Part shown: piece after piece, positions 6,021-33,807 of the stretch
How positions within the stretch are numbered: position 1 is the first letter of the stretch
Layout: the number at the start of each line of letters is the position of its first letter
Assembly: GCF_000264995.1 (NCBI RefSeq)
Contig: NW_006767455.1
Coordinates: 155,291 to 208,381, forward strand
Length of the DNA stretch: 53,091 nucleotides
From: Punctularia strigosozonata HHB-11173 SS5
Lineage: Eukaryota > Basidiomycota > Agaricomycetes > Corticiales > Punctulariaceae
Direction: 5' to 3'
Position numbers and translations under genes: made by a program
The notes under the pieces: generated by a model
What the model was told of the DNA's origin: nothing
Database searches by the model: none
Seen by the model: only the letters and a program-made list of their open reading frames with translations

Positions 6021-9000
6021 CTAATCGACCTCTCCATCCCATATTTTCACCATGTTGTCACCACCCCCCGAGACGACGCGCTTGCCATCGTGCGAGAACG
6101 CGACGGCCTGCACCCCATACTCGCCACCGTGAGCTTGCCAAGGCCCCGCCACGGTCTGTCCCGTCTGCGCGTCCCATATCCGCATCGTGCCGTCGTAGGA
6201 GCCGGAGACGACGTCCTGGCCATCCCGCGAGAATGCCACGGATGTGACGCCTTCTCCGTGCCCATGCAATGGCCCCAACACTGTCTGCCTTGTCTGAGCA
6301 TCCCAGATCCGGACCGTCTTTTCTCCTGACCCCGAGACGATGCGCGCGCCAACGGGGGAATATGCGACTGACAAAACGGAGCTATCGTGGCCTCGCAGCG
6401 GGTCCCCGACTGGCTCGCCTGTCTCAGCGTCCCAGAGTCGAATCGTCCTGTCGCTGGATCCAGAGGCGATGTTCTTCCCATCCGGTGAAAAGGCGACGCT
6501 CAGAACCCTGCTATAGTGACCCCGTAAAGGCTCGCCGATGGCCTGTCCGGTCTGCGCGTCCCAGAGTTGGAGCGTCTTGTCTTCTGAGCCCGAGACGATG
6601 CGGTTGCCGTCGGGTGAGAATGCGACACACAAAACCAGCGACGTATGCCCTTTGAGCGGCTGCCCAATCTGCTGCCCTGTCTGCACGTCCCACAGTCGCA
6701 CGGTCTTGTCATATGAGGCCGAGGCAAGGCGCTTTCCATCGGGGGAAAACGACACCGATCGGACCCAGTCAGTGTGCCCCCGTAAAGGCTCGCGGATTTC
6801 CTTTCCGGTGTCCGTGTTCCAAATGCGGATGGTGTTGTCATTTGAGCCCGAGGCGATTTGCGAGCCATCCGGAGAGAATGAGACGGAGCACACGATGTTG
6901 GTATGGCCTTCAACAGCCTTTAGCAGCCCTGTTGATAATATCAAGAGTTAGAAGGTATGGGATACAACGTACATGAGTACAACGCACTGCCAGTGAATAT
7001 CCGCTTGATCTGCATCATGGCCTCATCGATTTCTGGCCGCTCCTGATAGGGATCGGGCAACAGCTTCTTCAAATCGTGCCTCGAGTATTGCTTCGCATCG
7101 GGCGGCAATGCCGTAAACTTGCCCAAAACCCATATTATGTCGGTGACGCGTGCCTTTCGCAACTCAGGATCCATCCCACTGTCTTGCACGCGCCCGAGAG
7201 CATTGAAGAGTTGCATGGTGACGACACCCTCTGCAAACGCCTTCTTTCCGAGGTCTTTGCAGACTTCTAAGTCGCCGGTATGCAGAACCGTGTTGGGTAT
7301 ACTCACCTGTCGACACCATCCTCTCCAGCACATCGCGGTCTGCGTCGGCCATCCCGTCACTCGCGAGCTTGGTCGTTATATCACCTGCGCGGGTGCGGAA
7401 CGAGGATGCAATGCGATCCTTAGCAACAGAAAGCCTGCGTCGATCGGTATCAAGGTTCGAAATCACGTCCGCAACTTCAGGTTCCAGCAGAACCTCCATG
7501 CCCGTGGAAAGCGAGGAAAATGCACTGAGAGCTGCCACTATATCGGTGATGTGCGTTCTGCGGAGGTTCGGCTCCATCTTAAGGTCAGTCGCTGTATCTT
7601 TCAGGGCGTCGGATAGCTCGGTGAGCTTCCCGGAATCCTCGATCGATTTCCTGCCAGATTCTGCGCAGAGAGCGAATTCAGGCCCCGGGAAGGATAAGCA
7701 GAGAAGCCGTGCTCACTCGTAAACAGCAACATATCGAGCTTCCGGCGCTGTCCGACAGAAAGCCCGGTGCGGTTGACCAGGCAGCCGACAAGCTCCTGGG
7801 CGTTGCTGCGGGCGGTGCACATGACCCGGTCAAAGACCCGGTCAATGCCCGGTCGCTGCTGGACTAGAGGGAACAATCTCGCCAGATTGTGGTTCAAATA
7901 CCGTTTCGTGTCTTGCGACCGCAAAGGGAATGCACCCAAGAGGATCAATAAATCCGTAATTCGCTCTTCGCGGAAGCGCCAATCCGGGTCATTCTGTACG
8001 GTATTGAGAGCTTTGACCAGCTCAGACTCCTTGGCAATGTCCGTGATAACCATTTGGCCGAAAGCTATGGAAGGTGAGCTTTTGTAGGATAGAATGGGGC
8101 ATGGAGGCATAGCGGACTGACCGGTGACTGCAATGATACATAACAAATCACGGGCGGTGTCTGACAAGACTCGCCTGTTCGATAGGTCCATCAGGAGGTC
8201 TCCTGTAACTACGCGGAACGGTTGCTCAAGCTTCTCGACCGCTTCTTGATGACTCGAAAGATCTGGGGTTTTCCGGTCACCAAGAGACAAGATACCCCCG
8301 GCTTTGCGCATCCAAGTCTGAGTTGGAGCGTCGTTGTGTGACATAGGAAAAGCGCTAAGAGACAAGAGGCAGTCAATCGTATGCGCTTCCGAATCTTCCG
8401 TGGACTGCATGATTTTTTCCCAAAGCTGTGACGCATCCACGCTGTCTGCTACAGATCGCTTGCCATCCTCTGTATAGGATGTCACGTAAAATTGCAAATA
8501 GCATGAAGCGATGACTGACCCGATGATAACAGGGTTACGAGCACGTTGCGATCTGCGACCGAAAGCTCTTTGCGTGAGACATCCTTCAACACCCCTTTGG
8601 CCGAGATATAAGGGTCATGTTCGATGAGATTCCGCTGTTCCTGAGGTTGTGCGTATTGTTGCAGTACATCATCCCATGTTTTCCCGGAAGGTAGGCGGGC
8701 TCTCCACTCGGGGAAAGGTCGCTGATCCGAAGCCGGCGCTGCTGCCAGGTGCGGATTAGAGACCTCTTCAGGGTCCTGCGTAGAGGAACGCTCCGAAGAG
8801 ACGTTAGGATCGCTCTGCTGCGCTACTGAAGACGGCTTGATGGAATCAAGGACGGACTCGTGTATTAGCTGTCCTTCCATAATCTGACGCGGCGAGGCGA
8901 GGTGACGGCTGAGGAACAGCGGTCCTTATCAGTGCTAACAATGAAGCGCGAGTGACCATACGATGATACTCACCTCCACCGTGTATGCTCCCTATCCCGG

Positions 9001-10941
9001 TTAGGATCGTACGACAAATGTTTCAGGGGAAACCACTCCAGCATCCTCCAAAACCAATTCATGGAGTCGGTGGGCTTGACTTGCTTCCAATTGCCTTGGA
9101 AGTTCTCTGTACGGAGTCCTGCACGCGACGCTTCGTACGACATCCAGCGCAGAGCCGGTCCAAACTGGTCCAGATCTAAATTTACGTTGCTACCGCCGCC
9201 GCTGACCGTCTGCTCAGTCAAAGCCAGAACGAGGAAGAATTTTCTCGAGCGACTTACATGTCCGAATGAGACCCTGCGAACCAAACTTCCTTAACGTCTC
9301 CCTGATCCTTCGCATCATCTCTTGCAGCCGGCCCGACACCACCGTTTGCGTATTCGGGCAGGAACTTGACCCGAACCTCGTCGAGGGCAAGCGCGTGCCG
9401 GAAGAAGCAGACGTGCTTCATCCCCGTCGTCGTTTCTGGAAGACCCGGTCCGCGAGCAATTCCGATCGATGAAACAGTATCCCTGGTGGCAAATTATCGC
9501 TCCGTGGTCACGAAGGAATTGCGATTGAGCTCACCATGCGCCGACGAAGTGGACCTTGACATCCTTACGAGAAAGCGTACGCTTGAAGCGCTCACTCAAC
9601 TTATGGGGATCGGCCTTGCCGTCGTTGCCTTTGGATGCGTTCCCTGACTTGGGAGATGAGCCATTGCACTGGTTCACCGGCGTCTTTCGCGCAGCCCAGG
9701 TTGGCCACGCGACCCACGTCGGAAGGCTCCACGTCCATGGGAACCAATCTGCTTTGGACGGGTTTACGTTGCCCGGGGTGTCTGCACCGGCAGACCCGTC
9801 CTTGTCCTTGGAAGCTTCCTCGTGTTGCTGTGATCCCGCATCTGATGACGCCCGGAATGGCCAGAACGAGAGCTTCGGGAGCCAAGTAGGCGTGTTGCTT
9901 CTCGCTGAATTCGTGCCGGCAGAAACGGGTTCATCCTTTGATACGGTGTCCGCAGTTGGAGATTCGGAAAGTCTCTCCTGTTCGGCGAGAGTTGCCATAT
10001 AGAGCCCATGGGCGCTGTCATGCATTGTGAGTACATCGCTGAATCATGAAGACGAGCTACTCACAAGGATATCTGCCCGTCATTGCCTTTGTGAAGCAGC
10101 CCAACCTGGTATGTAAAGTAGGTAAGTCGACGTGTCACATGCGAGCGACCGGAAGTCGCACCCTTTGTATCATCCCTGCAATGATTCGGACTTGGTATGC
10201 GCCCCGCGAGAACCCTGCGATAACGGTAAGAGCGACGCCTACGGACTGATGCAGATGACGCACCGAATAAGAATATCCTGTCGTCCGGTTCGTAGTTTTC
10301 GGACAGCCACCGGTAGGCATCGAAAACGATATTCTCGAGGTTCCTGAGTGAAAGCTGGTGAATAGCTGTACCGGCGGAAGAGACGAGGTCAACGGATCGT
10401 CTCGTGCAACGGCTCACCATGCAACCGCCATGTCGACATGATGATACAATGCTTGCTTCCAGTAGTCGAACGACCAGCTGTTCTTCCTTGCGTACGTCCC
10501 AATACCGCTGTTATAGTACGTGAGCTGTTTTTTATCCTTGATGAGGCGGCTGTATAGCTCGACGACGTTCGTATTCTGGGGATCAAAGGTTAAGCGTCTG
10601 CGCGGAGAGAAGTGGTCTTTGCCGACCTTTTCGCTGAACTGATTGGCAGTCCCATCGATACAGACGACCAAGTTCCTGCCGTTGGGACTGCAATTGCACG
10701 ACTTGTTGGTCTTTGCCTCTGGTTGTTGACCTGCTTTGTTTGGAGCTTTGGTCGTTGGGTCAGAGCCAGACGTCACGGGAGGTGGATCAACAGCGATGAA
10801 CTCGTCATCCTCCGAGAGCGACACTGAATCCCAATCAAAGATCATGTCGTCGCCGGTCATCTTGGGACCATGGGTAGGGCCATGCACTGGGGGCGGATTC
10901 GGAGGTGATGTTGAACCCATGCCGTCGTCGGAGGGAGGCAT
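6021..10941 (-). CDS. DUF2235 hydrolase / helical repeats / WD40 propeller protein (paralog 1)
   Basis: Model, minus strand: exons 10941-10627, 10575-10418, 10343-10264, 10214-10162, 10105-10065, 10014-9535, 9482-9258, 9201-8974, 8908-8520, 8469-8122, 8064-7717, 7660-7307, 7254-6973, 6928-6021; about 1402 aa. Residues ~90-525 are a DUF2235 (Tle1-like phospholipase) fold: 'VCIDGTANQF', nucleophile elbow G-F-S-R-G with Ser ~187, 'AWDTVSS' with Asp ~377, and 'HSDIGGG' with His ~448, a plausible Ser-Asp-His triad. The lid region is Trp/Pro-rich. Residues ~640-1100 are four related helical modules of ~116 aa, each on a phase-1 exon. The last exon encodes seven WD40 repeats, one full propeller. There is no NACHT or NB-ARC domain. 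I infer a sensor-type lipid hydrolase. The joins at 7254 (alternative 7266) and 6973 (alternative GC donor, exon ending 6991) are the least certain. Confidence 0.85.
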
Positions 10942-12500
10942 CGGTCAACAGGCCTGGCACTGAGATAGAGGTTCGCTGTGGGTGGGGGATGTGGACGAGT
11001 GGCGGCCAGATGCAAGCAATACAAGACCGCTAAAAATGCGCATGCGATGCCCTCGCGGGTCCTTTTCTCATGCATGCAAGGGCACGCAATCCACGAGGCT
11101 TGCGATGGAGAAGCATCGCAGCAAGGTTCAATATGACTTGTACGTGCCTCACGGTGGATGATCGATCCCGGCGAAAACTTCGAAAGACGTGCGAAGCCAC
11201 CGCGTTAGTCTTAGTCGGACTTCCGCAATGGTCTTGATGATCTCCAGAACATCTCAATGAGTTCGTTCAAGTAGGTCGTCTCGCGGGTCGAGGTTGCATC
11301 GCTCTTCGATGGCCGCGTCCCTATGCTTCCGAGTCGCTTTACATATGTCACGTATGCGCATTGCGTAGGTGGGAGCTGTTGACAGAGCGTTCACGGTAAC
11401 GTCGCGAATGAGCCATGGCCATAGTCAAGAAGAACGCCGAATGCGTGAGATGGGCGCCTATGCGCCTATGAACGTGTTGGGTGGCGCGAACTTCCGGCCT
11501 CGTCGTATCCCTGATGGCACACTTGCAACGTTGGTCATTTGTGCCCTCCCGCTCACACCTTATCGCCTGTTGCTGCCGGAAACCATCCTTTTTGTCCGTC
11601 ATCAACGTAATGCAGCGGCAAGACGCCGGCAACGGCGAAACTTGCAACATCGTCGGTGCTCACGTACCACATACTGTCGTACGTACCACGCTTTGTGCAT
11701 TCTTCCTGACCAGAACCGTCCGCAATTAGTGCACTCTGACGTCTATCTTCAATGGATTGGTGCCACCTCGTGCTCACCCCATTCACATACATGAAGCACG
11801 AGGAGATTGACTGGTCGCTCTGACCGCACTCCGCTGCAACAGCCCTGGACCAGAAGACGGACCCTGCATGCCGCAATGATGGAGAAGCACAGGCGGTGGC
11901 AGCGACGAGATGCTCGCTGAGATTGGACGGACGCCACGACACGATTCTCATTGAATCGCGCTTGTCCACACCTCTAGGAGCAAGAACCTCTGAGGACTGA
12001 ACGATGTCGAACTATGTACCCCGAAGCAGTCCCAGTCCGTTCATTCTCCGGGTACTGCAGCGCTGAATCCGCGCCCGCAGCGCACGGTCGCGATAGGGTC
12101 ATGAAGGTGAACGCTTCCTAATACTATGTTCCGCCGCCTTCCCTCCATCCAGCTAATTGCTTCGGCAAATATGCCTCGCGATTGTCCATCCTCATCGAAT
12201 TCACAAACAGCGGCGCAGTCCTGTGGGACTGAAATCTGTACTTCGCGTTCATAAGACGTATGGTAACATATACATTCACGTATCCATTTTCATCGCCCAA
12301 TCTTACGGCGTTATTGTGTACCAGTACTACGTAATTGAAGCGACGGGTGCGGTACATGCTACGAAATTGTGAAGCAGCAACACTCTCTCAGACTCCTCGT
12401 CAAACCAGTGGATACCGAATATGCAGTGGGACAGGTGAGCCTCGCGGATTGACTCACGTCGACGAAGGTTTTGCCGTCCGTCGTTGATCTCGTACCGCTT
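10942..12500. other. Gene-poor stretch upstream of the DUF2235-WD40 gene
   Basis: This must hold the promoter of the minus-strand gene starting at 10941. Two minus-strand frames, ~11553-11948 and ~12124-12357, have fairly protein-like composition but no recognisable domain, no ATG-led conserved start for the first few residues and no clean splice partners. They could be relics or exons of a gene I cannot assemble. Confidence 0.35.
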
Positions 12501-12579
12501 GCCTAACGGTGAGTGTCCGCGCTGAGTCTGGGCCGGCCAAGAAGTTATGCTCAGTGAGATCTCGCAGACATAGTAAATG

Positions 12580-12800
12580 GCCTAGTGCGCTCTCGGGTGG
12601 ACAATCCGACAGCTCACCCGAGCAGGTGGGTGTGTCCCCCGAAACGGAGACCTATGAGAGCGCTAGGTTTGTTAGCTTAGGATCGAAAAGAGTCATAGGC
12701 CGAAGGTGGTAGGCAGATCCCTGACAAACCTGCAGCGACTCTCCAAGCGGTCAAGACTGTCAGGCCGAGCGGGCACCGAGGACGCGTGGTTGAGGCATCG
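12580..12800 (-). repeat. Dispersed repeat family, copy B (partial)
   Basis: A diverged segment lining up with 14430-14615 of copy C and ~2345-2500 of copy A, in the same orientation. Shared landmarks are the 'cgctctcg.gtg.acaatc' start, a 'ttgttagcttag.gatc' centre and a 'cctgcagcgact' end. It lies just beyond the stop of the SF3A1-WD40 chimera, so that chimera sits between two same-strand pieces of one repeat family. Confidence 0.55.
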
Positions 12801-12910
12801 TGGCACCGTCATAAGCTTTAGGTCCCGTAATCATGTCAGGCATATTCATGAATGGCAAAAGTGGGTACGCGCCAAAAACGGAGTGACCATGTCGAGCACG
12901 CCCGATCGGC

Positions 12911-14395
12911 CTAATCGTTCTCCGCGTCCCAAACCTTTACCAAACCGTCTTCACCGCCAGAAACGACGCGCTTGCCATCGGGCGAGAACACAACAGACCA
13001 TACGCTGTTGCTGCTCCCCACGAACGATCCCGCCACAGTCTGTTCCGAGTGCGCATCCCATATTCGGATCATGCCCCCGAAGGAACCGGAGACGATGTTC
13101 TGGCCATCCGGTGACAAAGAAACGCTAAAGACCTCGCGTCTGTGCTCTCGCAACGGCCCCAACACCGTCTGTCTCGTCTGCGCGTCCCAGACCCGGATGT
13201 TCTTACCCTGGAATCCGGAAACCATGCGCGTGTCGTCCGGGGAATAGGCAACAGACCGAACCCAATGATCGTGGCCTAGCAGTGGCTCTCCGACTGGCTT
13301 GCCTGTCTCGGCGTCCCAAGGTCGGATCGTCACGTCGCTCGATCCAGAGGCGATATGCTTCCCGTCGGGCGAGAAAGCCACGGTCCGGACCCAGTTCGGG
13401 TGTCCTCGCAATGGCTCACGAACTACTCGCACCATTGAACGTCCCAAAGTGGGGGCGGCTCCGAAGACATCCACAGGCGTGCGCGCGAGCGTTTTGAGCG
13501 GAGAGACCACGTTCGCGCCGCGCTGCAGCTCGGGCGTCTGCGCCTTGCAAGCCTCAAGCGCGTCTCGCTGCAACTTCCAACGCGGATCGAGCAGCTCGAT
13601 GCGCATGTGCTCCGTGAGTTCGTCAACGGGGATCTGCTGGCGACATTTTGTACAGCTCGTGGTAGCAGATGCCTTGGCTTTTGCGCCCACTATATGCACG
13701 CATAGAATAAGAGATACGCGCGCATATACGCATAGAGGAGATGCACGTACGTTTTGGTACATAGTCTGTTTCGATCTTCATCGGCCCACCTGCGCCAAGC
13801 GAGCTCGCCTGGATCGCCCTCGCCCTTTCGACGTCCCGCATCTGCTCCCTCTCTTCCCTCCTCCTCCTCCTCCTCCTCTTCCCGCGTCCTCCTCTCCTCG
13901 TCCGAATCTTCGTCGTTGTCCTGCTGCATTTCATCTTCGCCCGTGCCGGCGCCAGCTGACGATACCGCCATAGCTCAACCTCTTGTACGCTCATGGGCGG
14001 CGGCAATTCGGCGGGTGCGTCTGTTGCCGTGAACTCGATGATATGTAAGATCGCTTGATCATGCTGATCAATTTTGGCGAATGTGACTACCACGAAAGCC
14101 CGATCTTGTCATCATTGACTGAGGGAGGATAGGGTGAAGATACTCACTCCGCTCAGCCTCCTTCCGTCGTCCCTGGCCCTGTATTGCGCCCGTTTGTTGC
14201 TCTCCCATATCCTCGCATCCTCAAGCGACTTTCACCTCGCGCCCTCCTGCGCCTTCTCTGCCACGGTCGCCAACACCGCCCTCGCTTGGGACCAGCACCT
14301 TCGTATATCGGTCAACAAATAGGTTGAAGTACCCTAATGGGAATGCGCCTTCTTCACGAAGTCGAACCGCAATCTATCCGTGCCTGACAGGAACT
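12911..14395 (-). pseudogene. SF3A1 (Prp21) C-terminal fragment fused to a WD40 array
   Basis: On the minus strand, ~14395-13440 encodes pieces of splicing factor SF3A1: 'RFDFVKKAHS', 'YFNLFVDRYTKVLVPS', 'IEFTATDAPAELPPPMS', 'MKIETDYVPK' and, after an intron near 13745-13690, 'EHMRIELLDPRWKLQRD' and 'VSPLKTLARTPVDVFG'. These follow the family order. The SURP-bearing N terminus is missing. An in-frame stop and frameshifts break the part beyond 14150, and the acidic stretch near 13850-13960 is in a shifted frame. From ~13435 the same open frame continues without a stop into WD40 repeats equivalent to repeats 4-7 of the DUF2235-WD40 genes and ends at 12911. Exon 13762-12911 is therefore a real in-frame fusion, but the SF3A1 part as a whole is decayed and a functional product is unlikely. 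Confidence 0.75.
13690..14147 (-). other. Two intron relics kept in the SF3A1 fragment
   Basis: A GTGAGT donor at 14147 and an acceptor at 14087 bound a 61-nt gap between 'KEAERS' and 'FAKIDQHD'. A GTACGT donor after 'MKIETDYVPK' and a TAG acceptor before 'GAKAKAS' bound a ~57-nt gap. Both removals restore SF3A1-like sequence. Keeping introns shows that this copy arose by DNA duplication and not by reverse transcription of an mRNA. Confidence 0.6.
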
Positions 14396-14399
14396 TGTA

Positions 14400-15615
14400 C
14401 CTCGCGAGATCCTGCATAGTTCAGACGGCCATGCGCATACGCTCTCGAGTGAACAATCAGAGAGCTTACACGGACCAATATTGGTCGTCGTGCCGCCTCC
14501 CGAGAGCACGAACTTCCAAAGCGCTGCTTTTGTTGGCTTAGAGATCAAAATGTCTAAGGGCGAGGATGGCAGGCGTACCAACGACGACCTGCAGCGACTT
14601 CCCCGGCAGTATGATTGAGGTGTCAAGGGGCCTGCGGCTCTCCTGTGCCATGCATGGGCACAGCCATAGGCGGGGCTTGGGAACGCGTGAGGTGGATGTC
14701 GTTCTCGAGTCTGCGTGATGGAAGTGTGGCCCGAGGCAGAGGAAGGGCTTCAGCTGAAGCCTCTCGTCACGGGAGGATAGACACGGCCGCGGGGGTTGCC
14801 ACAGTTGACTTGAGATCCGTGTTGCGCCGTGAATCAAGGATTGCCGCGGGACGGTCGATATGCCAGGATTCTCCGAGCTCCTATGCGCGCCTCAACAGGT
14901 TAGTATGACTCATGACACGCATTTGGTGACCGCCAAAAACAGGCGGTCAACCCGAGCAGGCGCCAAACACGATCATCCGCCGAGGTTTCGGGGACACCGC
15001 GCTTCCCCCAGCAGATTCTGCACCAACAACCTCTCGGGCCGCATGAAGCATAAGACGGCGTAGTACTTACCGGATAATCGGGCTTGGAAGTGGTGGTCCC
15101 GATGAAGGCGAGGTCTCCGGCGAGTCCTACGTCTGTGCTTGCATACGGGATGCTCGCCCAGAAATGTCGATAGGTTGTGCCGGAAGAGCCGAGACTTGTC
15201 GAGGTCGAGAGTCAGAAGAGGGCTGAGCTGACGGAGGTGATCTGCTCCAAGGTTAAGCGCAAGCGACGCCCCGAGTTTGTGAGCTGACTCCGAGTGCAGA
15301 TGGGAAGCCAGTACTGAGTCGTGTCAAAGCGAAGTCGGCGCAGGGCCAAGGCGACACGGCGGGAAATCCCTGGAATCTGAGGGAAACATATAACAAAGAT
15401 ACTGTATGATAACTATGGTTGTTACTGACATATCTGCAGCTAAGCTATGTAGTCTGAAGTTATGACAGGATTATCTCAAGGATGCAGATATATGTCAGAA
15501 ATATGTATATTTTGCCCAGATTCAGCCTGTTTCCCGCCGTGCGACCGACGATCCCGACGTCATCGTCGCGTCTCGCACTTACCGCGCCGGCCAAGGCATC
15601 TCCACTTGAATGAAC
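14400..15615 (-). repeat. Dispersed repeat family, copy C
   Basis: Best-preserved partner of copy A (2290-3480). The match runs from the 'gcgagatc.tgcat..ttcagac.gcc' block at 14400 to the 'cgaccgacgatccc.acgtcatcgtcgcgtctcg' block near 15545-15580, with indels throughout. On the minus strand it keeps the frame 'GTTYRHFWASIPYAST' near 15190-15160. It is split at 15355 by a small inverted-repeat element. It directly abuts the broken 5' side of the SF3A1 fragment and may have caused that truncation. Confidence 0.65.
15356..15540. mobile_element. 185-bp MITE-like element with terminal inverted repeats
   Basis: Ends are perfect inverted repeats of 11 nt (ACGGCGGGAAA at 15356-15366 and its complement at 15530-15540). 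Partial pairing continues inward through a shared GAATCTG block. The element is flanked by GCGAC at 15351-15355 and 15541-15545, a 5-bp direct repeat. The homologous copy A at about 3370-3375 has a single GCGAC and no insert, so the empty site is visible in this window. The interior is AT-rich and non-coding. The superfamily is unclear; a 12-nt repeat starting CAC with a 4-bp duplication fits equally well. Confidence 0.75.
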
Positions 15616-16066
15616 CCGCCTCTCAGCCTGTTGCGAGATCGCGCCGGTCATGGCACCCCCCGCCTCAGCCGACGATCAACATCTACCTATGTTGCTTAGT
15701 CCATCGAGGATGCTGTTCCCAAACCATCCTAATACTCTGTAGTCCGCGAGCGGATCTATCTCTCGTCAAGGCATGTCGATATCGATAGTGGTAGACAGAG
15801 CGACGACCGACACTCTGGTCAGCCAAATGAGTATAGTACAAGGTGCACATAGAACGGAGGGAGAAGCAACGGAATACTCAAATATAGGTGACGATCTACT
15901 TATCGACGGGCCAGAGACAGACAGCGTACATTGGGATTGCATTATAGCCGGGAGCGGGAGTCGGACGATAAAGGAGCGAGAGCGTTCAGACGAGGATAGG
16001 GGATAATCAAACCCGAGAGACGGCACAAAGATGGCATTCCATTCACCGGATCGACAGGGAGGGAGA
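15616..16066. other. Intergenic, nothing recognised
   Basis: This is the 3' flank of the minus-strand gene ending at 16067 and the edge of repeat copy C. I see no conserved frame or repeat in it. Confidence 0.5.
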
Positions 16067-17267: not shown

Positions 17268-17294
17268 CGTGGGCACCGTTCCATGAGACTGCAT

Positions 17295-20391: not shown

Positions 20392-20713
20392 GGCGAGAGC
20401 GTGTGAGCGTTGCGGTTTGACGAAGGTGTGGTCGAAAGAGAAAGGACGGATGGATGTGTGCTGGACTCCGAGGAGGAGGCAGTCTCGCGCGAGGCGAGTG
20501 GTCAGCAAGGAAGGCAGTGGATAGCCGTGTGAGGCTGATGACTTCACCCCATGCCCCTGCTGCCACTTTCGGCAATCGTCGGGGTAAAGGCAAACGCGTT
20601 CACTCAGCTCTGTGTCCTGCTGCGAACTCTTTGCGTTTCCCTGGTATATGCATTTTTGACGCAAGAAGGTACATGGCTCGTCGTATACTCCAACTACAGA
20701 TTAATCTACACAT

Positions 20714-24271
<3,558 letters not shown>

Positions 24272-26275
24272 CCTTGACGACTAACGTTATACCAAAACGC
24301 GAACAACGACAGTTGTGTGTTGGACCAGAGAGAGAGATGTTGGCGTTATCCCAGCGCTCGTGCGGGACGAGAAAGCGGGCAATGAAAACGAGAAGAGAGC
24401 CGTTGGAAGGCGGGTTTACAGCCAGCACCACCGGCCGAGCTGGAAGTGGACCTGAAATGTAGGAGCGTGGGAAAGAAGCTGACGTGGTCGCTCGCACGTG
24501 GGGGAGGCGTCCCTGTGCTTTGCCTTCCACGCTCGCCGAGGCTTGCGAACGCCCGGTGGGTATTGGATGTCGCTTTTTAGGCGTTCACAGCCAATCAAAA
24601 CACAGAGCTTGCTTTCTTTCTCTCAGAGCTTTACCGGCTTGCATGGACGACTGCCTACACCTCCGGGAAACTTCGCACAGGCCCATGGAATGTCCTAGAA
24701 GCGCCGAGAGGAAAAGCGCGAAGAGTCGGGGCAACAGCCTATAGCTGGACGATAGGATGAATGCATCTTCATGTCCAAAGGTCCGACCGCCTCATCCGGG
24801 ATACGCTTCAGAATCACCACGTCGAAAGCGCTGGGACAATTGTATTCAATACTGCGAGTAACGTGGCGTTTTCAGTATCGGCCTGAGGTGCAGTAGAAGA
24901 TCCGGGGTTGCGGAAGATCCAGACCGCTTCAATGGACCCGTCTCTCAGCGTTGTCCATAAGTATGAGAAGATGGCACGTTTGCTTATCCCACCAATGAGA
25001 TAAGATAGGTGCTACAGCGACGTGTGCCAATCTGATATCGCTTATTTGCAGTTCCTGGTCCTCGTTGTCACTCAAATAGCTCAATTTCGGATGGCAACTC
25101 CTCTCCTTGCTGCTCCGGGGCTCAGAATCGCCGTTACTCGGCTATTGGCGTATCGTACCGCCGACGCATGATCGATGAATGTCTTTCACATGACGCTCTC
25201 AAGTTGCAGCGGTGTGTTACAACCAAAGATGTAGTACTCCAGTTCTTTATACTCGTGATTCATTCGTGCCCTTGCCGTTGTATCAACAAAATCTCAACCG
25301 CAACACTCTCCAGGCTGTCTATATCACTTCGCAGGCTCGTCTATTGACTTGTGAGTTGCAGCAATCACTGAAAGGGCTGCATTCATCGCTGAATTCCCAA
25401 TCGCTGCTTGTGTAGGATTTCCTGGGGCTTCTACTCTTCGGCGATGTTAGGGGCCATACCGGCGAGGTATGCGAAAACACCGGGATGGCTTCAGAACGAT
25501 GCAACCGTGTTGTTGGTGCCGGTGCACTCTTAGCGGTGCTTCACCGACAACGCAGATGTGAATCTCTGATACATACTCTATCCGGGCCAGAACTCAGCTC
25601 GTTGCGGGCGGCTTACTCTCGCTGTCTGTCCTGCGAACAACATTCCAGTCACAATTGGCGCGCTTCCCTATTGCTCGACGTTGCGCGCTCCTCGTGGGGA
25701 GCGTTCGGCGGTGCTCTGTACGCGTTCTCATGATTCGTGATGCCGAATGTTCGCCTGGCAGCCTAATTCCCCCCTTCGTTCATCACGCACAGAATGACAA
25801 GCTTTCCTTCATAGTCGAAACGTTGACCAGACATTTGATCCTCTACGATGTGACATATATGATACAGAGCCGTACGTGACGAAAATAGACGCGTCGAGAG
25901 CGATGCGCTTCTACCCGTGATCGAAGCGGCGGTTGCCCAGATTTCTTTCCCGATCTGTCCGGTTGCCTTCCTGATCCGTATTTCTGAGACCCGCGTGACG
26001 TCCGGGGGAGCCTTTGACGTTGACCGTCACTCGCTTCTGCCTCGCCGCCCCCGCGTTTTTTGGACCCTATTTTCCTCTTGGCCGTGTTTGTTTAGCGAAG
26101 TGAAACACCGCCGTCGTTCCTTGTCCTCGTCCGTTGTCGACGCTTTCGCTCATCCCCTCTCTCTCACCGTCGCTCATTGTTCTCATCACCGCTTTCTCGC
26201 TTTCTTGCGTATACAAACAGTATCACTCGTCACATAGTCCTACTACTCTAGTCCTCACCGATTCGACCGACCACA
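24272..26275. other. 2-kb intergenic region between divergent genes
   Basis: It separates the minus-strand calcium ATPase from the plus-strand secreted protein and so holds both promoters. Only short unconvincing frames are present. The last ~150 bases before 26276 are pyrimidine-rich (many CT and TC runs), a pattern often seen just upstream of well-expressed fungal genes. No RNA gene or repeat is recognised. Confidence 0.45.
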
Positions 26276-27418
26276 ATGCGCACCTTCACCGCCGGCCTCC
26301 TCGTCGTGGCGCTTTTGGGCGCGTTCGCATCCGCGGAGAACGCGCACGAAGCGCGTGGCCACCGCCGCTCCAGGAGCCTCTCTCAGCAAAGCGCGCGTTT
26401 GACCAAGCGCTTCATCAACGCTCGCTTCACATTCTACGAGACCGGACTCGGTACGATGCTCCATCTTGTTATTTCCGTTACGAAGATGCTCATATGGCTC
26501 TTCATAGGCGCATGCGGCAAGACCAACACTGACGCTGACTTCGTACGTTGCTGCCGTTTATCCGGTCTAGCGCCGTGCTCATCCTCCTCCTAGATTGTGG
26601 CCCTCAACTCGCAGGTATGCGCTCCTCTTTCTTCGGACGCTCCTGAGCATTTCTGACCCACCCATAGCAATACGGCAGCGGGGGAAACTGCTTTGACATG
26701 ATCACCATCACCGCGAACGGCAAGACTACCCAAGCCCAAATCACTGACGAGGTCTGTCGCTTCGCCCGCCGTCTGCACGCAACCTAAGCTCATTACCACT
26801 GCGCCTCCGTTTCTTTCTCACTGTCACCTCCGCAAACTCTCACCACCCGTCGCGCTCGTCGCCGCCCATGATGCTGTGCTCGTCCTCCATCCGTGATCCA
26901 TAATCGCCCACGTGCGCGCATATACGCAACAGTGCCCAGGATGCCCGTACGGCGGCCTTGACCTATCCCCTGGGCTCTTTTCTTTCTTCGCGGACCAAAG
27001 CGCAGGCGTCATCTACGGCTCCTGGAACTTCGGCTCTGGCTCGGACCCGGCGCCGAGCAGCACCTCCACCACGCACTCGCCCAAGCCGACGCCGACCACG
27101 ACCTCGGAGCCGCCCCCGCCAAGCACCACCTCAACCAGCGAGCCTCCCCCGCCGACCACGACCTCCAGCAAAACGCACAAGACCTCGTCCTCGTCGACCT
27201 TCACCCCCGAGACGACGACGACCTCGTCCTCGGAGGCCATTGCGAGCACCACTTCGTTGGTCGAGAGTATGCCGTCGTCCAGCGCGGAGCCGAGCCCGAC
27301 CAGCAGTGCGATTGAGGCGTTGCCCACCGGTACGGATGTTGGCCAGCTCGAGCTGTTCAATGAGGCGATGATGGCGCTCGGCGGATTCCTCGTGTCTGCG
27401 GCTGGCGCTCAGCAGTGA
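26276..27418 (+). CDS. Secreted double-psi beta-barrel (RlpA/expansin-like) protein
   Basis: Five exons: 26276-26450, 26508-26542, 26594-26614, 26668-26751, 26933-27418; 266 aa. The N terminus 'MRTFTAGLLVVALLGAFASA' is a clear signal peptide, followed by a propeptide-like stretch ending 'LTKR', a likely Kex2 site. The mature domain 'ARFTFYETGLGACGKTNTDA', 'GGNCFDMITITANGKTTQA', 'DECPGCPYGGLDLSPGLF' is the RlpA-like/expansin double-psi barrel with its conserved Cys pairs. The catalytic or carbohydrate role in fungi is not established. The C-terminal half is a Ser/Thr/Pro-rich tail, likely O-mannosylated, and suggests cell-wall association. Exon 3 is only 21 nt. The last intron (181 nt) is longer than most here. 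The tail end is only weakly GPI-like. Confidence 0.88.
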
Positions 27419-27698
27419 GCAGCGACCCTGCGTGTCCCTCACTTACCCGACGGGATCTCGGTTCGGTCGGTCGCTAGATCCATCGTTGGGCGGTCGCATC
27501 GCGAAAGTACTTATTTATTGTAATCGGATACATACTCCAGTAATGCGCATATATGCACACAAAATGTTCGTCGGTTAGCTTGCATCGCGTTCAGTTATGG
27601 GCCAGGAAAAGGCTCGAACACCGGAGTGCGCCATATAGAAATCTGAAGTTGTAGACATCTATTATCATGATCGAAAATTTACCCCGATAGGCAGTAGT

Positions 27699-29375
27699 CT
27701 AGTAAGCGAGGTCTTGGGGGAGCAATGCACAATCCCCTTTCCTAACGTACAGGGTGCCGCTGTTCCGCATATACAGCATCTCCGCGTCGCCGACCGCTCG
27801 GCGGACCCTACGCAACTCCCGTCGTGGCAAGTGCTGAACACCTTGGAGGACGAGCTCGAATGCTGGACCGGACGCGTGAAATCGAGCCACGAGGAGGTCC
27901 AGGCAGCCCTGGTGGGGTTCCTCTCGTTCGTATTGTGGCACGGTCAGCTGTATACGTCCAAGGGCCGGGAGCGGCATGTCCGACGATGACCCGTCTGAAT
28001 CCTCGCCCGTGCCGACGGTGAGGAAGGGCATGACCACGTTGCACGTTTCAAGACCTCGGAGATGGAGCTCACGTAAGTTGGGGGAACGGTGAAGGATGTG
28101 CCGAATGTGCAAAGGATTGAAGTAAGGCGGCAAGCTGAGCTCCAGGAATTCCATCGCGTCGTAGCGCATCTTGTAAAGAGCCCGGAGGGTGCGATCGGTG
28201 TCGAACCAGCCTTCGAGATGGAGCAAATATGGCCAGTCCCCGCCCGGATCCCTTTTCCGATCCGCATCGAGCCTGTTCACAGCGGTGTAGGACACGTGTA
28301 ACACCAGACGATGCACGGCCGCGCCCTCTTCGCCCCCGAATATCACGTTGTCTTCCAGAAAAGCGATCAACGCAGAAGGATCGACCACGTCAAATTGGAA
28401 GGGGTTCGGTTTTAATACCAGCCAGGCCGTTCGGGCGACTTTCATATGAGCCAGCCATGTCTGAATCTGCAACCAGCGCGGGCCCGTGATCGACAAAGAA
28501 ACAAGTTGCTCTAGCGCCACTACCCCGATGGGCCCGTCCGTAACGACCGGGCGCGGCGTGTCATCGCCGGAATACCGATACACGTCAATCTTGAGTTCAC
28601 GGAGGACGGGCATAGACATGAGAGCTGCCGTGAGTTCCCGTGCACTAGGACAACAAGCCTTAGGCAGCTTCTCCAGCTTCAACAGCGTCAGGCCTCCAAC
28701 GAGCGATTTGCAGCTAATCATGTCCCAATCGAACCGGGTGTTCGACAGTTCTAGGCTGCGTAACTGCGGGGTATATAAACCCAAGAAATTGTGCGGGACG
28801 CGCCCTCCTTCGAGATCCACGACGCAGCGGACCAGCTTTGGTGCTGAACGCGAAAGATGCACCTCGTCGCTCCGATCTTTTTCGTACCCGTGGAAGATGA
28901 GCCTCTCCGCGCGGTCCAAATTCCGTAAAGCCGTGCTTCGAGCATCCGCCGTAGGCCTGCCACATATGCTCAGAGGAGGGCTGATTCCTATATAAAGTGT
29001 CATGGACTTCGCCCTCGATAGGAAGATCTCCGTCAGCTCCCGAGAGAGACGGGGAACCTCCGTCCAGAGAATAGCGGCGCCCAACGCGACCTGTCGCCAG
29101 CGTCGACAGACTCCCACAAATGAATGGCTTTGAGGGAAAGACAGGAACCACAACTCTTCGAACACAATCATGCAGAATATAGAGGATAGGACTTCTGGTG
29201 GGAGCCTATGAACGGGGGACAAGTAGTTGCGGCGCTCGTGAAGACATCGCACTCGTTCTAGTAGGTCGCTGGTACGGCATTGCGGCCTTGTGTTGTCGAG
29301 CGATGGCTCACTTGCCGTGTGTTCTTGAAGACTCTCAAGTTGTCGCAGCAAGGTTTCGATCTCTGCGTCGATCAC
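27699..29375 (-). CDS. F-box protein, large variable fungal family
   Basis: One long open frame on the minus strand, 558 codons as read from 29375. Near residue 55 'YLSPVHRLPPEVLSSIFCMI' matches the F-box pattern, followed by 'FVGVCRRWRQVALGAAILW', the usual continuation in Agaricomycete F-box proteins; an N-terminal coiled coil ('IETLLRQLESLQEH') precedes it. The rest is a divergent Leu-rich region, probably for substrate recognition, acting with Skp1 in an SCF ubiquitin ligase. This family is very large and unstable in basidiomycetes. Oddity: the frame starts with GTG at 29375, and there is no in-frame ATG between the upstream stop (~29450) and the F-box. The true start is therefore probably in an upstream exon that I could not place. 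Confidence 0.85.
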   Translation of the reverse strand: MIDAEIETLLRQLESLQEHTASEPSLDNTRPQCRTSDLLERVRCLHERRNYLSPVHRLPPEVLSSIFCMIVFEELWFLSFPQSHSFVGVCRRWRQVALGAAILWTEVPRLSRELTEIFLSRAKSMTLYIGISPPLSICGRPTADARSTALRNLDRAERLIFHGYEKDRSDEVHLSRSAPKLVRCVVDLEGGRVPHNFLGLYTPQLRSLELSNTRFDWDMISCKSLVGGLTLLKLEKLPKACCPSARELTAALMSMPVLRELKIDVYRYSGDDTPRPVVTDGPIGVVALEQLVSLSITGPRWLQIQTWLAHMKVARTAWLVLKPNPFQFDVVDPSALIAFLEDNVIFGGEEGAAVHRLVLHVSYTAVNRLDADRKRDPGGDWPYLLHLEGWFDTDRTLRALYKMRYDAMEFLELSLPPYFNPLHIRHILHRSPNLRELHLRGLETCNVVMPFLTVGTGEDSDGSSSDMPLPALGRIQLTVPQYEREEPHQGCLDLLVARFHASGPAFELVLQGVQHLPRRELRRVRRAVGDAEMLYMRNSGTLYVRKGDCALLPQDLAY

Positions 29376-30193
29376 TTCCTGACCGTCATTGTACGGGCAG
29401 ATACGTGCGACGAGCGTGGGGCCAGGTGCTTGAAAATGAAAGATGCATGAGTTATGTTATGCTGAGGCCACATGGGAACCACCCACTCATTCGTCAGTCG
29501 ACTTTGGGCACGCAAAAGAGTTACCCGTTGACGTTTGCGTATACGGGCGGAAGGCAGGCGAGGTGCAAACAGTCCACAACGTGGCATCATGGGTCACATG
29601 ATCGTGGCGTTGGCCAGCGCTTTCGGTCGAGTTTGAGGACTTGACTTTCAAGCTTAAGTTAATGAGGCTTCGGCTGCAAAGCTTCATCGGCTGCACTATG
29701 CAATCCTGTTGTCTGCATCTATATTGGTCTCCGGCAACACCCTTCCATCTGTTTCAGAATGCACGGACTTTACATCGACACCGGTCAATATCTAAAGGCA
29801 GTAGCTGCCGGCTCATCTCCGGTGTCGCGTTCGTGCTTCTGCCTCATGGGAACTGCATGCTCGGTGGGGAAGGTTTCATTGGGCGGTATCTTAGCCCATA
29901 AGCCTGTCTGGGACACGTCTCAGGACGCGAACGTAGCCGTGCAAGTGAGTAATAGGTGCTTCTACGCGTTCAAATGCGGACTAGCTCGTGTACACGTTTG
30001 GGATCTTGGATCCTGCAACGTTCTCGAGCTTATTTTCCAGCAGAAAGGGCACGCCGTAGCCTACACTTAGCCGCCTGCTCTACATGTCAAAATGCTGTCG
30101 AGCTACATGGTTTGCAATCGACGAACCGGCGGACCAACCTCCCCTGCCTCCTAGGGCCCTGCTACAACCCCTTAAGACCTCTCGCATCCCGCG
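29376..30193. other. Intergenic between divergent genes
   Basis: This lies between the F-box gene (minus) and the second DUF2235-WD40 gene (plus). It probably holds a short first exon of the F-box gene; a minus-strand ATG-led frame near 29590-29525 ending at a GTAACT is one candidate. No other feature was seen. Confidence 0.35.
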
Positions 30194-33100
30194 ATGTTCT
30201 CTGAACCGCCTATGTCTGACAATCCAACACGCCAATCACCGGATTCGAGCGATAGTCCTGGACCTTCGTCGCCCTTAGGAAATGCGGCGTCACCCGGCAG
30301 CGCAACTCCAGTTGTCGAAGAAACGGAGAACACGGTGCCGGGGATCACTGATGCAGAGAGTAACAGGAAACCAAGCTGTCACTGCCCGAATACCGGCCGG
30401 AATCTCATCGTGTGCATCGACGGAACGGCGAATCAATTCGGCATAAAGGCCAGAATGTTGTCACAGCCGTCGACTTCTTGGTAATAACCTGTTGCTCTTG
30501 TAGAACACGAATGTGGTAGAGCTGTACAGTCGCCTCGTTGAAGACAACAAGCAACTCGCATACTACGATAGTGGGATCGGCACCTACGTCAAGGAGCGAC
30601 ACTCTCTGCGCTACGTGGCACAAGTCGTCGATCATACCATTGATATGGCCATCGCATGGTAAGGAGAGTCGTGTATATCCGTGAACCATGCCCTTGACCG
30701 TATCGACGCCGTACAGGAACTTCAAAGAGATTGTTCTCAAGGCTTACGAATGGCTGGCAGAAAACTATCAGAAAGACGATCGGATATTCCTGCTCGGTAC
30801 GATCTCAGCTGTACATCTTTTACCTCGTCTGAGCTGTCCGCAGGGTTCTCTCGCGGCGCTTATCAAGTTCGTGTTATCGCAGGGATGTTAGAAAAGGTAC
30901 GTCCATGCTCTCAGTATCTTCTTGACAGGCAACTCAGGTGTCCCTGGAGGTTGGCCTCCTCAGGAAAGGAAACAATAGGCAGATACGTTTGTGCGTACAC
31001 CACTACTCATAGAAGATTGATTAAGGCTGATTCCATCCAGCGCATACGATCTGTATGAATCTGCCACTGCACACGAGAAGAGGCGGTATGATGAGCCTGA
31101 CAAGACAATGGGACAAGACGCCCAACAGAAGACCAGATCTCACGAACAGAGCAACAGTCAACAATGTACGTTCTCTTCTTTCTGTAACAGTTCAAGTATT
31201 GAACTGGTTCTCGTAGTGAACATCCATTCCCACTTCCGCCCCTTCGTGTTCTGGCTTCTGCTCCTCCTCTCTTTCACACCCTGCATCGCTTCTCTACTCC
31301 CTTACTTTCTTGTCTCTCTTCTTCCTCCATTTCTCCACTCCGCATTGACGATTCCGATCATCGCTGCAGTTCTCGATGTCCTCGAATGGATCCCCGTGAT
31401 ATTTGCATTCCATCTCTTGCTAAAGCGCATGAAGCGGGGATTTCTGGGGGCTGCCGCCTCCGCCGGTAATGCATCCGCCAGCTCTCCTCATGAGGAGGAG
31501 CGCAGTGCAAGTGCAGGCCGCGCCATACGGGACGAATCCCCGAAAGAACGGGAACCAGAGGCTCCTTCGCCCGAAGACCTGTGCAAACACTTCAAGTCGA
31601 CCTTGTCGCGCGAAAACGTGAAGGTTCACTTTGTCGGTGCATGGTGGGTCACGCCTTCCGTGCGCGCGGCGACGCTTGTTAAGTGCGGTATTCCTAGGGA
31701 TACTGTATCATCCGTCGGCGTTGCTAGAGGTCCTACGCTACCCGAAACCACCACCGGGATGTCGCACGTCTGTGTATTCAGACATGCGCTGGCACTCGAC
31801 GAACTGCGGGTCAAGTTTCTGCCCGAGTACGCTAACGGAGGAGCTGGACCGAAGGAAAGCAAGGGCAACGTCAAAGAGGTATGGTTCGCAGGCTCTCACT
31901 CAGATATGTAAGCAAAATACATCGTACGAACGGAATCTTCCGATGGACGCTAACAGAAACCGTCGCAGCGGGGGAGGGAACTTACCGAATCTTGAGAGCG
32001 ACCGTTTCGGACCAGCGCTTCGCTGGATGACGTCCGAAGCCACGCTATGGGGGCTTCGGATGAAAGCCGATAGGGGCAAGTGGTACCCGTCACAACTGAC
32101 CAAGTCTATGAACTGGTTCTGGTGGTTCCTGGCTTCCCTGCCGATCAAGCGACTATCGTACGAAGACGCGGAGAGCACAAAGAGATGGCAAGTTCGCCCT
32201 TTGGCTTCCGATATCGTAAATTTCCACTCATGCCACGCAGGCCGCCTCATCTCGCGGCACCTCGGCAGGTGATGGAGGATCAGCTCATACACGAGTCTGT
32301 CTCCGACGTCGGGGAGACCTACACACCTCGGGCTCGGCTCCCACCTACCTACCCGGTAGGCTGGAATTTTGACGAGCTGAAGTTCAAAGGGAGGATAGAA
32401 GAAGACACCTACGTCTCCGCCCGTGCAATCATCGGCGCTCTTAAAGAAAGTGGCACTCTTACCGAGAGGCAAATACAGCGGCTGGCGGATCTGCCTTCGT
32501 CAGGTAAGTGATTGTTTTCTTCTAGTTTAAAAACAATAATAAAGGAATCGGTCAGATCATGGACGACAGCTCATTATCGACTACCCAAACTCCTGTACAG
32601 TATTGCTCGCCGCGCTTGAACGAGAATACGGACGCGAAGATAGAGAAATGCAAACAAACCTGCTCACAAGCGTTGCGATGGCAATGACAGCGTTTCACTT
32701 GGTGCCTCATGCACAGACGCGCGCAGTATCCAAGCTACGGCGTATAGTAGACATGATTGAACGAAATACCCCCGAGAAAATGTCCGCTGCAAATCATCTC
32801 CTGAAGGTGTTCCGTGACAGTAAGAGAGTTTCGCCACTCCGTGGATAGCATAGCATCCTCACGGGCTTGCAGGACAGGTCATCGCTATGGAAGGGCACGA
32901 GGATCATGTGATGTCCGTTGCGTTCTCTTCGGATGGCTCGCAAATCGCGTCGGGCTCTCGGGATAACACGATCCGGATTTGGAACGCGGACACCGGAAAG
33001 GAAATCCGCGAGCCTTTACGGGGGCACACTAATGGGGTCAACTCCGTGTCATTTTCCCCCGATGGAAAGCGCCTTGCCTCGGCCTCATGGGACAAAACCG

Positions 33101-33807
33101 TGCGACTGTGGGACGTGCAGACAGGGCAGCCGATCGGGCAGCCGCTCGAAGGGCATACGTGGCTGGTTACGTGTGTCGCATTCTCACCCGATGGCGACCG
33201 CATCGTCTCGGGCGCATGGGACAAGACACTCCGACTCTGGGACGCGCAGACGGGACAGGCCATCGGCAAGCCTTTACGGGGTCACTCTGACTGGGTTTGG
33301 AGTGTCGCATTTTCACCGGATGGGAGGCACGTCGCCTCTGGATCCGAAGACAGCACGATTCGACTCTGGGACGCCGAGACAGGCCAGCCAGTCGGGGACC
33401 CGCTGCGAGGCCACGATAGCTACGTTTTCTCGGTCGCATATTCCCCCGATGGCGCGCGCATCGTCTCGGGGTCCAGTGACAACACGATCCGGATCTGGGA
33501 CGCTCAGACGAGACGGACTGTGCTGGGGCCATTGCATGGGCACGGAAAAGGCGTCCCATCCGTGGCATTCTCGCCGGATGGCAAGCACATCATCTCGGGC
33601 TCCGCCGACGGCACGATACGGATATGGGACGCGCAGACGGGACACACCGCGGCGGGGCCTTGGGAAGCTCACGGTGGGGTCATCTCCGTTGCGTTCTCGC
33701 CCGACGGAAAGCGCGTCGTCTCGGGCGGCGTCGACAACAGGGTGAAAATATGGGACACGGAGATCGGTTGGGCTGGTTTGGGATGTCAGAATGGGATTGT
33801 TTGCTAG
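30194..33807 (+). CDS. DUF2235 hydrolase / helical repeat / WD40 propeller protein (paralog 2)
   Basis: Exons 30194-30448, 30504-30658, 30717-30796, 30844-30896, 30950-30990, 31041-31643, 31698-31907, 31969-32187, 32241-32503, 32556-32819, 32873-33807; about 1025 aa. Intron positions and phases match paralog 1 up to the repeat region. DUF2235 motifs: 'VCIDGTANQF', G-F-S-R-G with Ser ~166, 'AWDTVSS' with Asp ~397, 'HSDIGGG' with His ~463. Residues ~262-322, inside the hydrolase before the Asp motif, are strongly hydrophobic ('FVFWLLLLLSFTP', 'IPIIAAVLDVLEWIPVIFAF') and could form a membrane hairpin. Only one helical module (exon 10) precedes the WD40 exon, against four in paralog 1. There are seven WD40 repeats; the stop seen in the relatives is lost (TAG to TGG), adding a short tail. 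Two introns use GC donors. Confidence 0.85.

What the first reader, a model, noticed from the sequence alone, without database searches (positions are those of the whole stretch)
6021..33807. Two inverted DUF2235-helical repeat-WD40 genes: a candidate NLR-like sensor without NACHT
Seen: both genes join a DUF2235 domain with its Ser, Asp and His motifs intact, a modular helical linker, and a complete seven-blade WD40 propeller. Known: DUF2235 is the Tle1-type phospholipase fold used by bacterial type VI effectors, and fungal HET-E-type NLRs carry hypervariable WD40 arrays on a NACHT core. Inference: here the NTPase core is replaced by a different helical module, giving a lipid hydrolase directly controlled by a recognition propeller, possibly an allorecognition or immune cell-death device.
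Basis: partly seen in the sequence, partly recalled or inferred. Interest (0 to 1): 0.85.

Follow-up and report, generated by a model that had tools for sequence, protein, structure and literature searches.

The report
Candidate lipase-headed fungal recognition receptors
Two genes of a wood-decay fungus join a lipase-like enzyme head directly to a propeller whose contact residues change fast under selection, as in known fungal self/non-self sensors but without their usual switch domain, and very similar propellers also occur behind a protein kinase head.

Summary
Gene A (10941-6021, minus, 1406 aa) and gene B (30194-33807, plus, 993 aa) each splice to one open frame: DUF2235/Tle1-like hydrolase with Ser, Asp and His motifs, linker, seven WD40 blades. 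B needs two GC-AG introns. The genome is Punctularia strigosozonata; both genes are already in databases. The architecture is common in Agaricomycetes; no open-access paper was found that holds both DUF2235 and WD40.

Of the 27 highest-scoring of 45 WD40 places in this genome, 12 lie behind DUF2235 and 13 behind a protein kinase. Blades are mosaics across head types. No NTPase was found in the linkers.

Best reading: NOD-less, NLR-like receptors sharing a recombining pool of recognition propellers. Diversifying selection on the sensor is well supported; lipase activity and cell death are inferred.

The parts
6021..10941 (-). Gene A, 14 exons, 1406 aa: DUF2235 - helical linker - WD40
   Evidence: Splicing; same as public P0027 (PUNSTDRAFT_139370) apart from intron 1 and edges of exons 13 and 14
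9041..10680 (-). Gene A DUF2235/Tle1-like hydrolase (Ser 10207-10209, Asp 9479-9481, His 9266-9268)
   Evidence: PF09994 245 bits, the only Pfam family in the first 502 aa at E up to 1; codons checked
6973..8908 (-). Gene A helical linker, exons 9-13; exons 10-13 are symmetric phase-1 modules
   Evidence: Exon phases; no Pfam family at E up to 1
6021..6928 (-). Gene A WD40 exon, seven blades
   Evidence: PF00400 seven stretches; matched at 45 places in the genome, itself included
30194..33807 (+). Gene B, 12 exons, 993 aa, same order of parts; two GC-AG introns
   Evidence: Splicing; donors compared; public P0002 is a partial model
30395..32120 (+). Gene B DUF2235/Tle1-like hydrolase (Ser 30849-30851, Asp 31699-31701, His 31897-31899)
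   Evidence: PF09994 260 bits; codons checked
31217..31425 (+). Hydrophobic stretch inside B's hydrolase (maximum mean hydropathy 2.27), absent from P0001
   Evidence: could be a membrane insert or an unrecognised intron
32601..32819 (+). Gene B single linker module (phase 1 to phase 1)
32873..33807 (+). Gene B WD40 exon, seven blades
   Evidence: PF00400 seven stretches
12911..14108 (-). Third WD40 piece: splicing-factor (PRP21/SF3A1-like) fragment running into four blades; looks like a relic, not a receptor
   Evidence: PF12230 and PF00400; parent arrangement, SF3A1-like gene then kinase-WD40 gene, in L032

Best explanation
A and B are members of a family of intracellular recognition proteins that work like fungal NLRs but lack the nucleotide-binding switch. 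The seven-blade WD40 propeller is the sensor; its face is diversified by selection and by recombination among genes. The helical solenoid couples it to an N-terminal effector head, here a Tle1-type alpha/beta hydrolase. I propose that ligand binding moves or clusters the solenoid, frees the hydrolase, and that it cleaves membrane phospholipid, giving lytic death or a lipid alarm, in allorecognition or defence. Shown: domain order, intact catalytic motifs, purifying selection on the hydrolase core, diversifying selection at the known WD40 contact positions, decoupling of WD40 from head, and closely related WD40 and linker behind a kinase head. Inferred: ligand binding, activation by conformation or clustering, lipase activity, cell death, and the allorecognition or defence role.
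For: HV positions 10, 11, 12, 14, 30, 32, 39 were fixed beforehand from PMC12222747. A-B: dN/dS 1.35 against 0.32; seven C23 genes (six DUF2235-headed, one kinase-headed), 21 pairs: 1.56 against 0.34; 959.6 of 1475 nonsynonymous differences fall there and 0 of 50,000 random sets of seven positions reach that; five DUF2235-headed genes off C23: 1.29 against 0.38. 25 exons: 1.24 (12 DUF2235-headed) and 1.41 (13 kinase-headed) against 0.30 and 0.25. DUF2235 core dN/dS 0.13 (A-P0012) and 0.14 (B-P0001). WD40 decoupled from head: A-P0036 head pS 0.79, WD40 pS 0.10. Head swap: the 27 highest-scoring of 45 WD40 places carry 12 DUF2235, 13 kinase, 1 SF3A1-like chimera, 1 none seen. The linker module is upstream of WD40 in both head types (5 of its 15 matches at E up to 0.001, two of each head type and one unassigned). 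The same kind of head is also joined to NACHT (P0019), TPR-S/TPR (P0122, P0028), a caspase-like PF00656 (P0044) and ARM repeats (P0134) in other Agaricomycetes, as expected of an effector.
Against: No transcript, population or biochemical data. One genome only for the codon tests; gene pairs are not independent, and synonymous change at HV positions is raised too (pS 0.34 against 0.14), so part of the excess may come from conversion among divergent blades. Position 39 is only the eighth most variable, and across species positions 10 and 39 do not stand out. B may be damaged at intron 1. 9 of 25 DUF2235 loci examined showed no WD40, so the head also acts in other settings. Blades within a gene are only about 62% alike, so the repeat-shuffling mode of HNWD genes is not seen.
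Confidence: 0.6

Rival explanations
1. Recognition and hydrolase are real, but the output is a lipid signal or the killing of an intruder (bacterium, virus-like element), not self cell death; the Tle1 fold was kept as a weapon against non-self membranes.
For: DUF2235 is described as a toxin domain acting on lipids in bacterial conflict (PMC3482391, passages); kinase-headed relatives suggest a signalling output for part of the family.
Against: No evidence here for either target; the one characterised fungal phospholipase-headed NLR met in the passages read, PLP-1, kills the own cell (PMC12881547).
Confidence: 0.2
2. Ordinary enzymes or scaffolds: a lipid-metabolic hydrolase and a kinase family that use WD40 only for steady protein binding; variation is neutral.
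For: WD40 is a very common binding fold (recalled); 9 of 25 DUF2235 loci examined have no WD40.
Against: dN/dS above 1 at the seven pre-specified positions with strong constraint elsewhere; 23 to 25 distinct residue heptads among 25 genes in each of six blades, gaps counted as differences.
Confidence: 0.1
3. Decaying tandem copies: a duplication-prone region spawns WD40 copies, some already pseudogenes, and the pattern reflects relaxed constraint plus gene conversion.
For: The SF3A1-like/WD40 chimera in the window; B's intron-1 donor; a truncated copy on C7.
Against: 11 of 11 kinase-headed WD40 exons fetched are open to a single end stop; DUF2235 core dN/dS 0.13-0.14; other WD40 codons 0.25-0.38.
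Confidence: 0.1

Closest known systems
HNWD/NWD NLRs of Podospora anserina (HET-E, HET-D, HET-R)
   Same: WD40 sensor with the same hypervariable positions under diversifying selection; exchange among paralogs; an N-terminal effector
   Different: No NACHT, no HET head; seven blades; blades within a gene about 62% identical at nucleotide level instead of 80-100% (PMC12222747, passages); homogenised blade for blade between genes
PLP-1 type NLR (patatin phospholipase - NB-ARC - TPR, Neurospora)
   Same: Lipase-type head on a repeat sensor
   Different: Patatin instead of DUF2235, has NB-ARC, TPR sensor (PMC12881547, passages)
Fungal gasdermin-activating proteases fused directly to WD40, TPR or ANK
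   Same: An enzyme head fused directly to repeats is already described (PMC12881547, PMC10197012; passages)
   Different: Protease head and a gasdermin partner gene; here a hydrolase or kinase head; no partner gene was sought
T6SS lipase effector Tle1 / Tox-ABhydrolase1 (DUF2235)
   Same: PF09994 domain and Ser-Asp-His motifs
   Different: Carries linker and propeller; nothing points to secretion (not tested)
PkwA of Thermomonospora curvata (bacterial kinase-WD40)
   Same: Its WD40 is among the closest solved structures; kinase-WD40 order as in the sister genes (order recalled)
   Different: Bacterial; no DUF2235

Membership tests
NLR / STAND proteins | Central NACHT or NB-ARC P-loop NTPase | tested here: not met
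   No NTPase family in the linkers or in the N-terminal 502/500 aa at E up to 1; in models of P0001 and P0036 no strand of three or more residues lies in the linker; the Walker-like string in A (ARLPSGKT, aa 597) is not kept in the sister gene P0012
NLR / STAND proteins | C-terminal superstructure-forming sensor repeats | tested here: met
   Seven WD40 blades in A and B
NLR / STAND proteins | N-terminal effector domain | tested here: inconclusive
   DUF2235 head with intact motifs; effector action not tested
HNWD family | Hypervariable WD40 positions 10, 11, 12, 14, 30, 32, 39 with high dN/dS | tested here: met
   dN/dS 1.35 (A-B) and 1.56 (seven genes) against 0.32-0.34; position 39 weak
HNWD family | High identity among the repeats of one gene (over 80%) | tested here: not met
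   Mean within-gene nucleotide identity 0.621 (A), 0.634 (B)
HNWD family | HET domain and NACHT | tested here: not met
   PF09994 is the only family above its cut-off in the first 502/500 aa; linkers give neither
HNWD family | Allelic variation in repeat number and incompatibility phenotype | not testable with these tools
   One genome, no crosses
Tle1-like (PF09994) hydrolases | Domain above the curated cut-off | tested here: met
   245 and 260 bits, cut-off 27
Tle1-like (PF09994) hydrolases | Ser-Asp-His catalytic motifs | tested here: met
   Present in A and B; 128 of 140 proteins have all three motifs; aligned, weakly (E 0.043), with solved 9j3f
Tle1-like (PF09994) hydrolases | Phospholipase activity | not testable with these tools
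   Needs an assay
Gasdermin-protease gene pairs | Gasdermin gene next to a protease-repeat gene | not tested
   Not searched for; the head is not a protease

The most novel reading that the evidence does not exclude
In Punctularia, and probably other Agaricomycetes, a NOD-less receptor system has evolved in which one recombining pool of hypervariable WD40 propellers on a modular exon-shuffled helical stalk is plugged onto interchangeable enzymatic heads (Tle1-type lipase or protein kinase), so that one specificity can be moved between a killing and a signalling output.
Probability: 0.45. Interest if true: 0.8.

Novelty: new variant of a known kind. Interest (0 to 1): 0.62.

Why it matters
The fungal NLR surveys whose passages I read define the class by its nucleotide-binding domain, so receptors of this kind fall outside them, although many Agaricomycetes carry them. 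If they are recognition receptors, they show that the switch domain is dispensable, give a lipase/kinase head swap on one sensor, and offer candidate loci for self/non-self recognition in Agaricomycetes (recalled: largely unidentified there). The prediction is directly testable: isolates should differ at the seven positions per blade.

Tried and rejected
Hidden P-loop in the linker: a loose Walker-A pattern over 140 proteins gave 13 matches in 12 proteins. Six lie in the WD40 consensus (AFSPDGKS/T); one is the NACHT P-loop of P0019; A and its public copy P0027 share one string in the linker that the sister P0012 lacks; P0017, P0057, P0076 and P0104 have single strings at scattered places. Taken as chance; rejected.

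Relatives of the linker alone: P0012 residues 620-1092 found only P0012 and P0027 (2 proteins at E up to 0.001), so its origin is open. A 49-residue piece found 15 places in the own genome at E up to 0.1, 5 of them at E up to 0.001; eight belong to DUF2235-headed and six to kinase-headed genes, one (C8:2523) has no head assigned; the weaker ones rest on position as much as on score.

Hydrophobic insert as a membrane anchor: only B and P0062 of 115 segments reach mean hydropathy 1.6; not taken as a family trait.

Fold search with the P0001 model was filled by WD40 propellers and, in the viral library, largely by viral WD40 and other propeller proteins; it says nothing on head or linker. The P0036 model is of lower confidence (mean pLDDT 73.7, much of the linker under 70), and its public model lacks part of the hydrolase.

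NCBIfam gave only weak propeller families, all far below cut-off.

Literature: ten searches of open-access PMC papers; none holds DUF2235 with WD40. Subscription papers and preprints were not searched.

Not done: NB-ARC and other NTPase families were not searched in the genome (only NACHT); gasdermin or other partner genes were not sought; the codon test was not made in a second species.

Caveats of method: dN/dS is Nei-Gojobori with Jukes-Cantor correction over blades 1-6 only; gene pairs are not independent. Dropped rows: of the 14 exons aligned, L020 and L032 are in neither set; L013, L015, L016 and L020, the C7 partial copy and the window chimera are not in the 25 exons; exons were trimmed to 300 aa there, L044 lacks the start of blade 1, and B's blade 1 lost two columns. 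The head tree assumes no recombination, which contradicts; it is used only to show that heads do not form one clade (0 of 200 bootstrap trees). The kinase-headed genes were not spliced; head and propeller are joined by strand, distance (about 0.7-1.2 kb from the kinase match to the WD40 match) and, in six, the linker module. The genome searches score only the best candidates, so counts are lower bounds.
Full report
WHAT IS THERE. The window is C23:155291-208381 of a 33.6 Mb genome. Contig C23 is 261,686 bases long, the length of the contig holding public proteins P0001, P0002, P0012, P0027 and P0036 of Punctularia strigosozonata HHB-11173 SS5, an agaricomycete of the order Corticiales. Gene A (minus, 10941-6021) has 14 exons and codes for 1406 aa; gene B (plus, 30194-33807) has 12 exons and codes for 993 aa; neither has an internal stop. 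P0027 is gene A as annotated and P0002 a partial gene B, so the genes themselves are not new to databases.

THE LINKER. In A it includes four exons (348, 348, 354 and 294 nt) each bounded by phase-1 introns; B has one such exon of 219 nt. Such symmetric exons can be added or lost without breaking the frame. Pfam gives no family for A's linker at E up to 1 and only two weak unrelated ones for B's. In P0001 and in P0036 (longer linker, lower confidence) the model has no strand of three or more residues there, so not the beta sheet of a P-loop NTPase. So the NOD domain that defines NLRs was not found.

HOW COMMON. The search with B's first 700 residues gave 431 proteins at E up to 0.001 (a capped candidate list; best 120 shown), and one with a Psilocybe DUF2235 gave 1074 (best 120 shown). 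Of A, B and the 138 homologs held, 112 of 140 carry WD40 blades by my profile and 43 have exactly seven. Genera include Auriscalpium, Pleurotus, Hohenbuehelia, Dendrothele, Moniliophthora, Auricularia, Exidia, Lentinula, Gymnopus, Obba and Gelatoporia. The same kind of head is also joined to NACHT (P0019, with P-loop GVAGCGKS), TPR/TPR-S (P0122, P0028), caspase-like PF00656 (P0044), an S9 peptidase (P0041) and ARM repeats (P0134). In the own genome, 16 of 25 DUF2235 loci examined have WD40 blades on the same strand (14 of 23 fetched loci, plus A and B); a 26th match, a fragment on C32, was not examined.

HYPERVARIABLE PROPELLER. In the Podospora HNWD genes, repeat positions 10, 11, 12, 14, 30, 32 and 39 are the high-dN/dS sites (PMC12222747, passages read). 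I fixed these beforehand and mapped them by the GH and WD anchors of the blades (alignment). Between A and B, 42 HV codons have dN/dS 1.35 and 216 other codons 0.32. Over seven C23 genes (A, B, four more DUF2235-headed and one kinase-headed; 21 pairs) the values are 1.56 and 0.34; 959.6 of 1475 nonsynonymous differences fall on the seven positions, and none of 50,000 random sets of seven positions reaches this; six of the seven are the six most variable positions, and 39 ranks eighth; five DUF2235-headed genes off C23 give 1.29 and 0.38. At the protein level, over 576 blades of 112 proteins from many species, positions 30, 14, 12, 11 and 32 are the five most variable within proteins, but 10 and 39 do not stand out.

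CONSERVED HEAD, EXCHANGED PROPELLER. The DUF2235 core is under strong purifying selection (dN/dS 0.13 for A-P0012, 0.14 for B-P0001). A and B have saturated synonymous sites in the head (pS 0.77) but pS 0.20 in WD40. Of the paralogs compared, A is closest in head to P0012 (pS 0.37), yet its WD40 is closer to that of P0036 (pS 0.10 against 0.144), whose head is saturated against A's (0.79). Unlike HNWD genes, blades within one gene are only about 62% identical, while the same blade in different genes is 81% (86% among 12 C23 genes): exchange runs between genes, blade for blade, not by shuffling repeats within a gene.

TWO HEADS ON ONE SENSOR. A's WD40 exon is matched at 45 places in the genome, itself included. 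The 27 highest-scoring (over 250 bits) include 12 downstream of a DUF2235 head, 13 downstream of a match to one kinase query, the SF3A1-like chimera of this window and one partial copy without a head seen (the kinase is PF07714). A's propeller is closer to most kinase-headed ones (80-89%, one 72%) than to the DUF2235-headed ones on C8, C9 and C15 (77-80%). The linker module before the WD40 also occurs in both kinds. Kinase-headed propellers show the same selection pattern (1.41 against 0.25). On framework codons of 25 exons the heads need at least five changes on the tree, two forced by well-supported branches, and 0 of 200 bootstrap trees unite either head type, with the caveat that recombination breaks the tree model. 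Nearest relatives switch from blade to blade: on framework codons A's blade 2 is 99.1% like a kinase-headed gene, its blade 4 97.2% like two DUF2235-headed ones. Of 23 NACHT matches none is on C23, and the longer WD40 matches near NACHT genes on C7 and C12 are 65-67% like A's, with short pieces up to 82%; similarly divergent WD40s also stand behind kinases on C3, C22 and C8, so a separate NACHT pool is suggested, not shown.

MECHANISM. Established: the anatomy, constraint on the enzyme, diversification of the sensor and its exchange between heads. Inferred: the propeller binds a variable self or foreign partner; the solenoid holds the head inactive; binding frees or clusters heads; the hydrolase attacks phospholipid. 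DUF2235 in bacterial conflict is described as a lipid-acting toxin domain, also listed in fungi (PMC3482391, passages), and bacterial Tle1 is reported to be inhibited while bound to its carrier VgrG (PMC10433429, passages), which makes release on binding plausible.

AGAINST KNOWN SYSTEMS. PMC4986451 lists patatin and SesB-like heads (passages); PMC9815663 counts alpha/beta hydrolases among the largest fungal NLR head families and says SesB-like ones are almost missing from basidiomycete NLRs (passages). Neither contains the term DUF2235 or Tle1. Enzyme heads fused directly to repeats are described for gasdermin-cleaving proteases (PMC12881547, PMC10197012; passages). So the principle is not without precedent; the DUF2235 head, the kinase twin and the shared hypervariable pool are what I found no paper on (ten searches, listed under Tried and rejected).

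WEAK POINTS. B's intron-1 donor is GC, unlike the 15 other paralogs listed, and its hydrophobic insert is unusual. All codon tests come from one assembly. Activity and phenotype are untested.

Against the calls I mended the wording of the 27 places (by score, not identity), the NACHT comparison, the P-loop count, the kinase-WD40 distances and the HET test (one search added).

Noticed in passing
window 12911-14108 (-) and L032 4823-9064: A splicing-factor (SF3A1/PRP21-like) fragment runs in frame into four WD40 blades. In L032 (C23:30000-39500) an SF3A1-like gene stands just before a kinase-WD40 gene, so the window piece looks like a copy of that pair with the middle deleted.
   Followed up: partly
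window 2586-2964 and 14671-15041: Two similar stretches (74, 76 and 89% in three blocks) about 12 kb apart: a small segmental duplication on either side of gene A and the chimera. No Pfam family for the reading frame 2862-3383.
   Followed up: partly
L033 104-2298 (-), L032 6522-9064 (+), and 11 further places: A family of at least 13 protein kinase - WD40 genes, clustered on C23 and C8, with the same hypervariable positions under diversifying selection.
   Followed up: yes
P0041 (Pleurotus djamor), P0044 (Psilocybe cyanescens), P0019 (Stygiomarasmius scandens): DUF2235 heads fused to an S9 peptidase, to a caspase-like domain and to NACHT: further candidate effector combinations in Agaricomycetes.
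   Followed up: partly
window 30449 and 32188 (gene B): Two GC-AG introns in one gene; the one at 32188 is shared with paralogs in L027 and L030, the one at 30449 is B's own among those compared.
   Followed up: partly
P0121 (Gymnopilus dilepis), 1797 aa: Two DUF2235-WD40 units in one predicted protein (14 WD40 stretches, two PF09994 stretches); may be a fused gene prediction.
   Followed up: no
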